Assembly: GCA_035556555.1 (NCBI GenBank)
Contig: DATMES010000024.1
Coordinates: 124,001 to 188,000, forward strand
Direction of reading: 5' to 3'
Source: Frankiaceae bacterium
GTDB taxonomy: Bacteria > Actinomycetota > Actinomycetes > BP-191
Length of the DNA stretch: 64,000 nucleotides
Below, in pieces: positions 306-4,644 of this stretch (its first letter is position 1; each line of letters begins with the position of its first letter). Below the pieces are notes generated by a model that worked only from the letters and a program-made list of their open reading frames with translations, did no database searches and was not told the origin of the DNA. The position numbers and the translations under genes were made by a program.

Positions 306-425
306 GCCTGGCGACGCTAGAAGGGGGGTGTGACAAGTTTGCGGCGCCGCGCCGACGGATGGTTCGCGAGCCCGGGCGAGGGCTCACCCGATGTTCTCCG
401 ACTACGTGCGGGAATAGGGCGCCGC

Positions 426-445
426 GTGGCGCGGACACGCGCCAC
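426..445. promoter_or_regulatory. Perfect 8-bp inverted repeat in the divergent promoter region
   Basis: GTGGCGCG (426-433), a 4-base loop and CGCGCCAC (438-445) form a perfect dyad in the 306-552 gap between the exonuclease and the secreted-protein cassette. It ends 5 bp before a predicted -35 box (451-456), so an operator for a repressor is plausible. A transcript hairpin is less likely because the site lies upstream of both flanking genes. Confidence 0.4.
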
Positions 446-450
446 GGGCC

Positions 451-479: not shown

Positions 480-552
480 CTGCCGCCATCAGGTACACGT
501 TGTCCTACTCGGCCCCCAAGGCCCGATGAACGCAACGAACGGGGGAACGTCC

Positions 553-948
553 TTGCGTGCCATTTCCGCGGCTGCCCTAGGGGCAGCCGCTTTGTTGTGT
601 CCGGCTACGCCAGTGTCAGCGTTCACGGTGCCACTCGGCATCGACGCCGTCGTCCATGTCGATCCGGACTTCACGGCCTGCGCCACGGTGACGGCTGATG
701 ACGGCACCGTGTTCGCCGGGACGTTCACCGCCGTCGGCTATATGCAAGGCCCCGGCACGAAGGCCGCGACGGTCCGCGGTGCCACTCCCGTCAGCGGCGC
801 CGGTTTCTGGTACGGCTGCATCTCCGGGGCATATTCCGGAGCGACCGTGGGCGAGGCGAAGTACGTGCTGAACGCGCATGGCGAGACCGGTGACGTCGCC
901 GTCGTCATCCAATGTGTAATCAACCGCGGGTCTTTGACGTGTGTCTGA
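553..948 (+). CDS. Small secreted Cys-rich protein, paralogue 1 of the cassette
   Basis: 131 aa, function unknown. I start it at TTG 553 because the ribosome-binding block gaacgggggaacg (538-550) lies just upstream. The same 13 bases precede the paralogue at 1944. An in-frame ATG at 526 would place this block inside the gene. An N-terminal signal peptide ends near PATPVSA. The mature part has four cysteines (ACATV, FWYGC, VIQC, LTCV), a GPGT turn and the ending GDVAVVIQCVINRGSLTC, which aligns with the 1944 and 2345 products. Probably an extracellular all-beta domain with two disulfides. First gene of a four-gene run with a predicted promoter at 451-479. No family recognised. Confidence 0.7.
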   Translation: MRAISAAALGAAALLCPATPVSAFTVPLGIDAVVHVDPDFTACATVTADDGTVFAGTFTAVGYMQGPGTKAATVRGATPVSGAGFWYGCISGAYSGATVGEAKYVLNAHGETGDVAVVIQCVINRGSLTCV

Positions 949-1018
949 CACGCGCCGCCGTGACGGACACGGAGCAACGGCCGGAGTTCGCTTGATTCAC
1001 CGCGATGGGGGAGTTGCC

Positions 1019-1915
1019 ATGTGCCGGCTGCGAACGGCGTTGGTGCTGCTGTTGCCGGGCGTGCTGATGCTCCCTGCGCCGGCCACGTCTGCCGCGCCAG
1101 GCGTGACGATGGCGGGGGTCACGACGATCACCGGGACCCGGCCCGGGTACGCCGACGTTCGCGTGCCGCGCACGGTCACGGTCGACACGTCGTTCGACGG
1201 TGGCCGTGATCTCGCCGTGTCGGGAGCCGGTGCGCTCACGGCGTTCGTGCTGGTCGGCACCGACGCGCGTACGCGCGGCTTCACCCTCGCGGGCGGCGCC
1301 GCGGTGGTGAGCGGACAGGCCGAACGTTTCCTGATGCCGGTGCCGGAGTGGCCCGCTCTCGGCGGCGGGACCTACGAGGACACGAAGACGTATGCGAACT
1401 CCACGAAGCTGCCGGGGGGCTCGTACCGCCTCTATTACGTGTCCACGAGTCGCGGCGCCATCTCACTGCGCCTACCCGGTCTGCCTGGGCGCACCACTGT
1501 CCGGCCTGGCGGAAGGGTGACCGCGAAGGTCGCCCCGCCCGACCATGAGCTGACGGGCACACCCGCCCGCGAGAACGTGTTCGTCGCGTCCACGACCGAG
1601 AAGATGACACGGCGAGGGTTCGCGCTCCAGGTTCTGCATTCACGGCTCGAGGCCGAAGCCGCCTGGCAGCTGGTGATGTGTCACAACAATCCGGCCGAGT
1701 CGGCCGCGGAACCACTGCGCGACGCACCCGGTTGTCCTGCGGGCGAGAAGCACACCCTGGTCAATCATCGTTACCCCGGCATCGACCCGGACACGAAGAT
1801 GTTCGTGCAGGCATATGCGGGCCTACCGGCCGGCGAACACGGTTTGAGCGCCATCTTCACGAACGAAGGGCGCGCCACCGCCATCGGTTACTCCACCTTA
1901 TGGCTGGAGTACTGA
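1019..1915 (+). CDS. Secreted protein of unknown function
   Basis: 298 aa. ATG 1019 is chosen over an upstream in-frame start at 941 because GGGGGAG sits just ahead of it and the signal peptide (CRLRTALVLLLPGVLMLP, cleaved near ATSAA) begins there. The mature protein is predicted mainly beta: VDTSFDGGRDLAVSGAGALTAF, GGSYRLYYVSTSRGAISLRLPG, then a C-terminal part with two cysteines (VMCHNNPAE, APGCPAGEKH) and QAYAGLPAGEHGLSAIF. It lies between two of the Cys-rich paralogues but is not obviously related to them. Codon use is less GC-biased than in neighbouring housekeeping genes. I recognise no catalytic motif, and no function can be assigned. Confidence 0.7.
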   Translation: MCRLRTALVLLLPGVLMLPAPATSAAPGVTMAGVTTITGTRPGYADVRVPRTVTVDTSFDGGRDLAVSGAGALTAFVLVGTDARTRGFTLAGGAAVVSGQAERFLMPVPEWPALGGGTYEDTKTYANSTKLPGGSYRLYYVSTSRGAISLRLPGLPGRTTVRPGGRVTAKVAPPDHELTGTPARENVFVASTTEKMTRRGFALQVLHSRLEAEAAWQLVMCHNNPAESAAEPLRDAPGCPAGEKHTLVNHRYPGIDPDTKMFVQAYAGLPAGEHGLSAIFTNEGRATAIGYSTLWLEY

Positions 1916-1943
1916 GCAGACATTCCAAGAACGGGGGAACGAC

Positions 1944-2348
1944 GTGCGCGGAGCTCTGACGCGCGCCGCAGTCGCCATCGCGCTGGTCGCGGTTCCGCTC
2001 TCCGAAGCGGGGGCGACGCGGGCGAGATTCGGCGCCGACGGCGCGATCACCGTCTACGACGACATGGGCGCTTGCGCGGTGCTGGAGTTCGATCAGCCCG
2101 TCACCGGAAGTGGCCAGCTCACGAGTGACGGGGTCGTCAACGGACCAGGCACGATCACCGCTCCCGTAGCGGGTGCCCAGCCCGTCGTGCTCGTCGGGGC
2201 GACGTCGTGGTACGGGTGCCTGCCGGACTCCTACGCCGGTGCGGCGACCGGGGCGGCGACCTACCAGCTGACCGCGACGACGACGGCAGGCGACTACGCC
2301 GAGGTTCTCGTGTGCACGGTCCGGCTCGGGTGGGTGACGTGCCGATGA
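1944..2348 (+). CDS. Small secreted Cys-rich protein, paralogue 2
   Basis: 134 aa from GTG 1944, with the block gaacgggggaacg at 1929-1941 as ribosome-binding site. Signal peptide MRGALTRAAVAIALVAVPLSEAGA, then a mature domain with four cysteines: ACAVLEF, SWYGCLP, EVLVC and WVTCR. The stretch GPGT...WYGC...YAGAATGAATYQLTA...GDYAEVLVC matches paralogue 1 closely and paralogue 3 at its C-terminal half. Its stop overlaps the start of the next gene (ATGA), so the two are translationally coupled. Function unknown; an extracellular disulfide-stabilised beta domain is inferred. Confidence 0.72.
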   Translation: MRGALTRAAVAIALVAVPLSEAGATRARFGADGAITVYDDMGACAVLEFDQPVTGSGQLTSDGVVNGPGTITAPVAGAQPVVLVGATSWYGCLPDSYAGAATGAATYQLTATTTAGDYAEVLVCTVRLGWVTCR

Positions 2349-2770
2349 GGCGGCGACTCCCGGCGGTCGTAGCGATCATGCTCGCGGCTTCGGCGGCGCC
2401 GGCGTTCGGCGTCGGCGTCAACGTCCGTGGCGGCCCGGTCGGCTACGACGTCGACGACACCGGTGAGGCCTGCTTCACGCACGTCACGAGGGGCTCGGTC
2501 CAGGCTGTCGCGACCGCGGTCGGGCTCGTCACGGTGGGGCCGCTCGAGGAGCTCATGACGATCCACACGACGCGGGGCACTCAGCCGACACGCATCACCG
2601 ACGTCGCGGATCGGACGACGAAGGACTACGTCTTCGTCTGTGTCGGTGGCACCGGCCGCCGCGTGGTCGGGGGAAGCGTCGTGTTCACGTTCACCGCGCA
2701 CGGCACGACGAGCGACCTCGCCGAGGTGCTGGTCTGCCGCTACACCTACGCCGGGCCGCACTGCACCTGA
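2345..2770 (+). CDS. Small secreted Cys-rich protein, paralogue 3
   Basis: 141 aa from ATG 2345, overlapping the preceding stop by 4 bases. Signal peptide MRRRLPAVVAIMLAASAAPAFG. Four cysteines in the mature part (EACFTH, VFVCVGG, EVLVCRY, PHCT). The C-terminal TFTAHGTTSDLAEVLVC is clearly the counterpart of TYQLTATTTAGDYAEVLVC in paralogue 2, while the middle has diverged and lost the WYGC motif. Last gene of the cassette; the next gene is convergent and only 2 bp away. Function unknown. Confidence 0.7.
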   Translation: MRRRLPAVVAIMLAASAAPAFGVGVNVRGGPVGYDVDDTGEACFTHVTRGSVQAVATAVGLVTVGPLEELMTIHTTRGTQPTRITDVADRTTKDYVFVCVGGTGRRVVGGSVVFTFTAHGTTSDLAEVLVCRYTYAGPHCT

Positions 2771-2772
2771 CG

Positions 2773-2979
2773 TCAGTCCTCGGGGCTGGTCACGCGCACG
2801 CGGACGGTCGCGATCGTTCCGAACACCGCCACGAGCGCGGTCAGCACGGCGACGAGCAGACCCGCGGCGGGACCGGCGGCGACATGCGTGCCGGCACCGG
2901 CTACGGCACCCGCCCCGACACCCGCCAGAGCGGCGGTGGCGGCGCAGGTCCGTGCCTCGTTCAGGGACATCCGGGTCAT
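2773..2979 (-). CDS. Small membrane protein, hypothetical
   Basis: 68 aa with two predicted membrane helices (TCAATAALAGVGAGAVAGAG and GPAAGLLVAVLTALVAVFGTIATVRV) and charged ends (MTRMSLNEAR, TSPED). On the reverse strand an AAGGGAGGG ribosome-binding site lies just ahead of the ATG, which supports a real gene. It converges on the secreted cassette and diverges from the carboxyltransferase gene. No family recognised. Confidence 0.5.
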   Translation of the reverse strand: MTRMSLNEARTCAATAALAGVGAGAVAGAGTHVAAGPAAGLLVAVLTALVAVFGTIATVRVRVTSPED

Positions 2980-3078: not shown

Positions 3079-4644
3079 ATGACGGACGAGACGTTGCGCG
3101 ACGTCGCCGCCGCGCTGGCCGAACGCCGCGCCGACGCGTTGCGCATGGGCGGCGACGACCTGGTCGAGCGGCAGCACTCCCTCGGCAAGCTGACGGTGCG
3201 CGAGCGCCTCGAGCTGCTGTTCGACCAGGGGACGTTCGTGGAGTCGGGGCTGCTGGCCGGCGCGGTCGACTCGCCGCAGTCGCAGGGCAAGCGCACGCCC
3301 GCCGACGGCTGCGTCACGGGCGTCGGCGAGGTCGACGGGCGCAAGGTCACGGTGATCGCGTACGACTTCACGGTCCTGGCCGGCTCGATCGGCCTGCACG
3401 GCGAGCGCAAGGCGGCACGGGCGCGCGAGATGGCGGTACGCCACGGCATGCCGATCGTCTACCTGCTCGACTCCGCCGGCGCGCGCGTGACGGAGTCGGT
3501 GGGGGCTGCGTTCGCGGGGGCGGGCGACCTGTTCCGCGAGCTGACGACGATGAGCGGCGCGGTGCCGCAGGTCGCCGCGATGATGGGCCCCTGCTCGGCG
3601 GGGACGGCGTACATCCCGGCGCTCTGCGACTTCGTGCCGATGGTCAAGGGCACGTCGTCGATGGCGCTGGCGGGCGTGCACCTCGTCCGCGCCGCGACGG
3701 GCGAGGAGGTCACCGAGGAGGAGATGGGCGGCAGCGCCGTCCATAACAAGATCAGCGGCGTCGCCGACCGCGAGGCGGCCGACGACCCGTCCTGCCTCGC
3801 GATGGTGCGCGACTACCTGTCGTACCTGCCGTCGAAGTACGGCGACCCTGTCCCGCTGCGTGCCACCGAGGACCCGAGTGACCGCCGGTGCGAGGAGCTG
3901 TACGACATCGTTCCCGCCGAGAACCGCAAGGCCTACGACATGCGCCGCGTCCTCAAGGTCCTCGCCGACGACGGCGAGTTCTTCCCGATGAAGCCCGACT
4001 GGGCCCGCTCGGTCATCACCGGCTTCGCGCGGTTCGGCGGGCGGACGGCGGGCGTCGTCGCGTCACAGCCGATGCACATGGGCGGCGCGCTCGACATGCA
4101 CTCCGCCGACAAGGCCGCGCGCTTCGTCAACCTCTGCGACTCGTTCGAGGTGCCGCTCGTCTTCCTGGTCGACGTGCCCGGCTTCCTCGTCGGCAAGAAG
4201 GTCGAGCACGACGGCATCATCAGGCACGGCGCGAAGATGCTCTACAACGTCTCCGAGGCCACGGTCCCGAAGGTCACCGTGGTGCTGCGGAAGGCGTACG
4301 GCGCCGGCTACTTCGTCATGGCGGGGCGCGCGTACGAGGCCGACCGGCTGCTCGCCTGGCCGACCGCGGAGTTCTCGGTGATGGGGCCCGAGGGGGCGGT
4401 CAACATCCTGTTCCGCAAGCAGCTCGCGGCGGCCGGGGACGACGAGGCGCGCGAGGCGCTGCGCGCGCAGCTCGTGGCGGGGATCAAGCAGAGCATCGAC
4501 CCGTACCTCGCCGCGAAGATGGGCTTCGTCGACGACCTCATCGACCCGGCCGACACGCGCCGGCACATCTGCCACGCGCTGGAGGTGTCCGCGGGCAAGC
4601 GGATTCTGCGGCCGCACCGCAAGCGCGGCGTCACACCGGTCTAG
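3079..4644 (+). CDS. Acyl-CoA carboxylase carboxyltransferase (beta) subunit
   Basis: 521 aa, usual length for the propionyl/acetyl/methylcrotonyl-CoA carboxylase beta subunit. It transfers a carboxyl group from biotin-carboxyl carrier protein to an acyl-CoA. The crotonase-fold halves are visible: N-terminal GKLTVRERLELLFDQGTF and LLDSAGARVTESVG (acyl-CoA side, GA oxyanion region), C-terminal VFLVDVPGFLVGKKVEHDGI and RKAYGAGYFVMAGRAYEAD (biotin side). GAGTGAGAGG-type spacing precedes ATG 3079. No biotin carboxylase/carrier (alpha) gene is in the window, so the substrate cannot be fixed. Possible roles are fatty-acid precursor supply or branched amino-acid breakdown. Confidence 0.93.
   Translation: MTDETLRDVAAALAERRADALRMGGDDLVERQHSLGKLTVRERLELLFDQGTFVESGLLAGAVDSPQSQGKRTPADGCVTGVGEVDGRKVTVIAYDFTVLAGSIGLHGERKAARAREMAVRHGMPIVYLLDSAGARVTESVGAAFAGAGDLFRELTTMSGAVPQVAAMMGPCSAGTAYIPALCDFVPMVKGTSSMALAGVHLVRAATGEEVTEEEMGGSAVHNKISGVADREAADDPSCLAMVRDYLSYLPSKYGDPVPLRATEDPSDRRCEELYDIVPAENRKAYDMRRVLKVLADDGEFFPMKPDWARSVITGFARFGGRTAGVVASQPMHMGGALDMHSADKAARFVNLCDSFEVPLVFLVDVPGFLVGKKVEHDGIIRHGAKMLYNVSEATVPKVTVVLRKAYGAGYFVMAGRAYEADRLLAWPTAEFSVMGPEGAVNILFRKQLAAAGDDEAREALRAQLVAGIKQSIDPYLAAKMGFVDDLIDPADTRRHICHALEVSAGKRILRPHRKRGVTPV

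What the first reader, a model, noticed from the sequence alone, without database searches (positions are those of the whole stretch)
553..2770. Four-gene secreted cassette with three diverged Cys4 paralogues
The products at 553, 1944 and 2345 share a four-cysteine layout, a GPGT turn, WYGC in two of three and a GDxAEVLVC...TC ending. Two of them even share an identical 13-base ribosome-binding block (gaacgggggaacg), so upstream DNA was duplicated too. They are driven by a good promoter behind a perfect dyad. No family is recognised; this could be an undescribed surface, toxin-like or matrix module.
Basis: partly seen in the sequence, partly recalled or inferred. Interest (0 to 1): 0.7.

Follow-up and report, generated by a model that had tools for sequence, protein, structure and literature searches.

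The report
Paired secreted protein module in actinobacteria
Four neighbouring genes in a soil-type actinobacterium make three related small disulfide-bonded secreted proteins and a larger secreted partner; the partner belongs to an unnamed family that travels with its own matching small cysteine-rich proteins in several actinobacterial lineages, so this looks like an undescribed extracellular protein pair whose job is still unknown.

Summary
A (553-948), C (1944-2348) and D (2345-2770) are real, secreted, four-cysteine paralogues: A/C 41% identical (E 9e-15), A/C versus D profile score 47 against at most 21 in 200 shuffles. The identical 13-base ribosome-binding block is real and unique in the window. 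Order A-B-C-D, including a C/D stop-start overlap, is conserved in a second genome of the genus (MAG Frankiaceae BP_191) and missing from the same site in a third. AlphaFold gives mature C as an all-beta sandwich (pLDDT 88). No Pfam, NCBIfam or PDB family matches.

B belongs to an unnamed secreted family, multi-copy in this genus and in about 1-2% of sampled actinobacteria. Small secreted cysteine-rich proteins sit next to B far more often than chance (10/26 versus 4/189). Partner class follows B clade without exception among the classes tested (0 of 10,000 shuffles), and one partner tree copies its B tree. A separate B clade instead sits beside an ECF sigma gene and a BsuPI-domain membrane protein.

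Best reading: an exported B plus small-Cys-subunit pair, diversified by duplication and fast evolution, acting outside the cell in binding or recognition. The pairing is well supported; the biochemical function is inference.

The parts
425..446 (.). Perfect dyad CGTGGCGCG-GACA-CGCGCCACG just upstream of the promoter-like site
   Evidence: Sequence, dyad scan; not conserved in sister genome
451..479 (+). Promoter-like TTGACG-17-TACGTT
   Evidence: Sequence; below the threshold of the consensus scan; weak
537..549 (+). Ribosome-binding block GAACGGGGGAACG before A
553..948 (+). Gene A: 131-aa secreted Cys4 protein (signal peptide about 553-621)
   Evidence: ORF, paralogue of C, orthologue in G001 55%
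1019..1915 (+). Gene B: 298-aa secreted protein, member of an unnamed multi-copy actinobacterial family
   Evidence: ORF, orthologue 51% in G001, family by profile
1929..1941 (+). Identical ribosome-binding block before C
1944..2348 (+). Gene C: 134-aa secreted Cys4 protein (signal peptide about 1944-2015); predicted all-beta sandwich
   Evidence: ORF, structure pLDDT 87.7, orthologue 58% in G001
2345..2770 (+). Gene D: 141-aa secreted Cys4 protein (signal peptide about 2345-2410), start overlaps the stop of C (ATGA)
   Evidence: ORF, homologous to A/C, same overlap (GTGA) in G001

Best explanation
The cassette encodes an exported, extracellular two-part module. B is a larger (about 270 aa mature) mostly beta protein with one conserved Cys pair; A, C and D are small beta-sandwich subunits, each probably clamped by two disulfides (C1-C2 tying the sheets, C3-C4 across the last hairpin). 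They are made together (one operon, C and D translationally coupled), exported by Sec, oxidised outside the membrane, and act outside the cell without covalent anchoring. The small subunits most likely bind B and/or an external ligand (polymer, enzyme or neighbour-cell molecule), with B as the constant scaffold or co-receptor and the small proteins as the varied recognition part. Shown: paralogy, operon layout and its conservation, secretion-type N-termini, beta fold (predicted), statistical pairing of B with small Cys proteins, agreement of B clade with partner class. Inferred: physical B-partner contact, disulfide pairing, extracellular binding role.
For: Conserved A-B-C-D order and C/D overlap in a second species while the cassette proteins kept only 36-56% identity against 65-91% for most flanking genes. 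Small secreted Cys4-8 genes beside B relatives 10/26 vs 4/189 background, Fisher P 8e-8 (one of the four background cases is itself B-adjacent). Partner class maps on the B tree with the minimum 3 changes, 0/10,000 label shuffles as few. Within the C6 class the partner tree has the same topology as the B tree, across two families. A G34-type pair is found in genomes of two different families, f11 in the same class and f57 drawn at phylum level. High-confidence beta model of mature C; Cys101 and Cys110 are in register across the predicted last hairpin. No LPXTG or lipobox.
Against: No direct evidence of contact between B and the small proteins. The ACD domain is not detectably homologous to the other B partners, and its Cys spacing differs (45-62/31/8-9 vs 13-39/34-41/12-25). 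At least one tandem array of small Cys4 proteins in the same genome has no B next to it (G000 contig 3), and one B clade has no such partner. The B model is unusable (pLDDT 40). One genus member lacks the cassette, so it is dispensable.
Confidence: 0.45

Rival explanations
1. Secreted inhibitors: the small two-disulfide beta domains block an external hydrolase or protease of competitors or grazers, as small disulfide-bonded inhibitors of Streptomyces do, with B as a further inhibitor or carrier.
For: Size, paired cysteines, fast divergence; a B clade neighbours a membrane protein with a BsuPI (proteinase inhibitor family) ectodomain.
Against: No match to any inhibitor family in Pfam, NCBIfam or PDB; BsuPI here is in a neighbour, not in B or A/C/D; no conserved exposed reactive loop identified.
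Confidence: 0.15
2. Structural surface or matrix layer: A/C/D and B assemble into a coat or extracellular matrix on the cell.
For: Several similar small subunits plus a larger one, acidic small subunits, no known enzyme domain, no anchor; multi-copy family in the genus.
Against: Pairing is clade-specific rather than interchangeable; absent in one close relative; low codon adaptation in the window copy does not suggest high expression.
Confidence: 0.2
3. Secreted antibacterial toxins with partner (competition module).
For: Duplication, rapid divergence, presence/absence between close relatives.
Against: No recognisable immunity gene, no toxin domain, no dedicated secretion system in the cassette, no match in PADLOC or PHROGs; signal-peptide-like N-termini on every product including any would-be immunity protein.
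Confidence: 0.08
4. B and the small proteins are lineage-specific secreted orphans that merely sit together by chance and shared ancestry of loci.
For: Different partner families, some B copies alone.
Against: Adjacency enrichment and clade-partner agreement across families.
Confidence: 0.1

Closest known systems
Bacterial Ig-like beta-sandwich domains (weak Foldseek neighbours: ApaG/Asf1-type sandwiches, tick CirpT1)
   Same: All-beta sandwich of about 110 residues
   Different: No match at E<=0.001, TM-scores at most about 0.53, no sequence relation; only a fold-level likeness
Small disulfide-bonded secreted beta proteins of streptomycetes (tendamistat, neocarzinostatin; recalled from own knowledge)
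   Same: Secreted, about 75-115 aa, two disulfides, beta-sandwich
   Different: No Pfam hit to any of them at E<=1; as far as I know they come without a B-type partner
BsuPI (PF12690) membrane proteins beside ECF sigma factors
   Same: Neighbour of one B clade in the own genome and in two other families; beta domain outside the membrane
   Different: Not part of this cassette; neither A/C/D nor B matches PF12690

Membership tests
Neocarzinostatin-type or alpha-amylase-inhibitor (tendamistat) small beta proteins | Match to the family's Pfam model | tested here: not met
   no Pfam family at E<=1 for A, C, D
Neocarzinostatin-type or alpha-amylase-inhibitor (tendamistat) small beta proteins | Same fold in solved structures | tested here: inconclusive
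   beta sandwich, best Foldseek E 0.028, neither family among the 50 matches listed
BsuPI proteinase inhibitor family | PF12690 match | tested here: not met
   not in A/B/C/D; present only in neighbours of other B copies
Cell-wall-anchored or lipoprotein surface proteins | LPXTG sorting motif or lipobox | tested here: not met
   neither motif in any of the four
Phage or defence-island protein | Match to PHROGs or PADLOC, or presence on phages or plasmids | tested here: not met
   A/C/D: (C on plasmids); B on plasmids and phages:
The unnamed B + small-Cys-partner module described here | B-family protein by profile with an adjacent secreted Cys4-8 protein | tested here: met
The unnamed B + small-Cys-partner module described here | Small partners all homologous to one another | tested here: not met
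   ACD has no profile link to the other partner classes; some of the others link (G35-L113, C6-L112, G35-G31)

The most novel reading that the evidence does not exclude
B is the constant half of an undescribed extracellular recognition system of actinobacteria in which each B lineage has its own dedicated, co-inherited small disulfide-stabilised partner(s), and one B lineage is linked to an ECF sigma factor with a BsuPI-domain membrane protein, making it a possible sensor-effector or ligand-binding pair for outside signals.
Probability: 0.3. Interest if true: 0.7.

Novelty: new variant of a known kind. Interest (0 to 1): 0.5.

Why it matters
Small secreted proteins of unknown function are numerous in actinobacteria and usually have no handle. 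Here a statistically supported, clade-matched partner gives one: it predicts which protein each small one should bind, and makes the hypothesis testable with pull-downs. It also defines two protein families (B, and the ACD domain with a confident beta model) without a match in Pfam, NCBIfam or PDB.

Tried and rejected
Known families: Pfam, NCBIfam, PADLOC, PHROGs, PDB by sequence and by fold, all without a significant match. A wider search for ACD homologues: none outside the genus in 395 genomes of the class, none by pattern scan of genome contigs with C, none on plasmids. Mobile-element origin for B: no plasmid or phage match. Homology of ACD with the other partners: not detected at profile level. 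The dyad as conserved operator: rejected, absent in the sister genome. Structure of B: attempted, unusable. The first alignment of the G001 A gene was in a wrong frame and was redone. Literature searches gave nothing on this module.

Full report
WHAT IS THERE. Four plus-strand genes lie between a minus-strand gene at the window start (start codon near 305), a 585-aa DEDDh exonuclease/UvrC-like protein as judged from its sequence, and a convergent small membrane-protein gene (2773-2979), followed by an acyl-CoA carboxyltransferase (3079-4644). A, C and D are short, start with signal-peptide-like segments and carry four cysteines in the mature part; B is a 298-aa secreted protein. A/B and B/C gaps are 70 and 28 bases; C and D overlap by ATGA. 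The sister genome has GTGA at the same place, so the C/D overlap is conserved.

PARALOGY. A and C are 41% identical (E 9e-15); the A1-C1 pair of the sister genome is 47%. A-A1 (55%) and C-C1 (58%) exceed A-C, so the duplication predates the two species. D is more distant: its orthologue D1 is found by an A+C profile (E 7.5e-7), and profile-profile comparison of mature parts, signal peptides removed, scores 47.4 against at most 20.8 in 200 column shuffles. All six proteins keep 31 residues between the second and third Cys and 8 or 9 between the third and fourth. GPGT and WYGC are shared by A and C, not D.

CONSERVATION OF THE CASSETTE. The own order holds only three genomes in the collection, all of one genus. 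G002 has the same neighbours without the cassette. Cassette proteins are 36-56% identical between G000 and G001 while most flanking genes are 65-91% (the small membrane protein is 50% over a partial match). GC3 in the window copy is low for this genome (A 0.77, B 0.83, C 0.85, D 0.92, window genes mean 0.95), less so in G001. Fast evolution and gain/loss are typical of secreted proteins facing a changing environment; a recent foreign origin of the own copy would have to be squared with the syntenic copy in G001.

FOLD. AlphaFold on six sequences gives mature C at mean pLDDT 87.7, pTM 0.79, all strands. Foldseek finds only generic beta sandwiches (best E 0.028 in PDB, 0.014 in viral models; no E<=0.001). 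B could not be modelled (pLDDT 40, two sequences).

B AS THE CONSTANT PART. Profiles of B find 3-5 copies in each genus member and relatives in 8 of 395 genomes of the class and 4 of 396 drawn from the phylum, counting the own genome in both (only a few candidates were scored per genome, so copy numbers are lower bounds). Reading neighbours in 24 further stretches plus the G001 locus, an adjacent same-strand gene is a small secreted protein with 4-8 mature Cys in 10 of 26 cases, against 4 of 189 other genes (P 8e-8); one of those four (L090) is itself beside a B that my gene caller missed. The gene caller and signal-peptide rule are simple ones written here. Partner classes defined by sequence similarity (ACD; C6; G35 with L031), plus the ECF-sigma-linked class, fall on the B tree with 3 changes, the minimum, reached by none of 10,000 shuffles. 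In the C6 class the four small proteins branch in the same order as their four B proteins, spanning two families. The G34-type pair occurs in G012 (family f11, same class) and G403 (family f57, drawn at phylum level) and their B proteins group together (support 0.74). A profile of the C6 partner finds five places in 385 genomes: the four seeds, all beside B, and one weaker hit away from B.

LIMITS. ACD is not detectably related to the other partner classes, so 'B with a small Cys partner' may be repeated recruitment rather than one ancestral pair. A tandem array of four Cys4 genes in the own genome (contig 3) has no B nearby. The ECF clade of B has no small Cys partner in the stretches seen. 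The shuffle test treats related loci as independent. None of this shows binding.

FUNCTION. I consider an extracellular binding or recognition pair most likely, because of secretion, cysteine pairs, a beta sandwich, no known enzyme domain or anchor, clade-matched partners, duplication and fast divergence. One B clade stands beside (divergent from, or downstream of) an ECF sigma gene followed by a one-TM protein with a BsuPI ectodomain (E 1e-7 and 5e-6), in the own genome and in two other families, which hints that B proteins belong to envelope or outside-sensing circuits. Inhibitor, matrix and toxin readings are kept as rivals.

REGULATORY DNA. The 13-base block before A and C is real and singular in the window; B1 and A1 in the sister genome have similar blocks, C1 does not. 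The promoter is plausible but weak, the dyad is not conserved.

VERDICT.

Noticed in passing
L077 5072-7533 (G000 contig 21), L087, L091, L094, L095: A B-family clade sits divergent from, or just downstream of, an ECF sigma factor gene (Pfam Sigma70 r2/r4) that is followed by a one-TM protein with a BsuPI ectodomain (PF12690), in three families; a possible ECF/anti-sigma-like locus with a proteinase-inhibitor-type sensor domain.
   Followed up: partly
L114 4164-5948 (G000 contig 3): Tandem array of four secreted Cys4 paralogues (138-144 aa, Cys spacing 30-31/36-37/17) with no B gene beside them, in the same genome as the window.
   Followed up: partly
window 568-590: Strong perfect hairpin with T-rich tail (GCGGCTGCCCTAGGGGCAGCCGC TTTGTTGTGT) inside the signal-peptide codons of gene A; looks like an intrinsic terminator or attenuator; I saw no counterpart in the start of the sister A gene.
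   Followed up: partly
window 553-2770: Cassette GC3 (0.77-0.92) is below most other genes of the window (mean 0.95).
   Followed up: yes
G000:C49:12976-13644 (L069, L078): A truncated B-family copy with an in-frame TGA upstream, probably a decaying paralogue.
   Followed up: no
window 2773-2979 (-): 68-aa gene with one predicted membrane segment between the cassette and the carboxyltransferase; a 70-aa homologue lies at the same place in G001 (50% over a partial match), and G002 seems to have one too.
   Followed up: no
L093 4447-6906 and onward: B flanked by three mutually similar Cys4 proteins, an independent case of the same three-plus-one layout in another family.
   Followed up: yes
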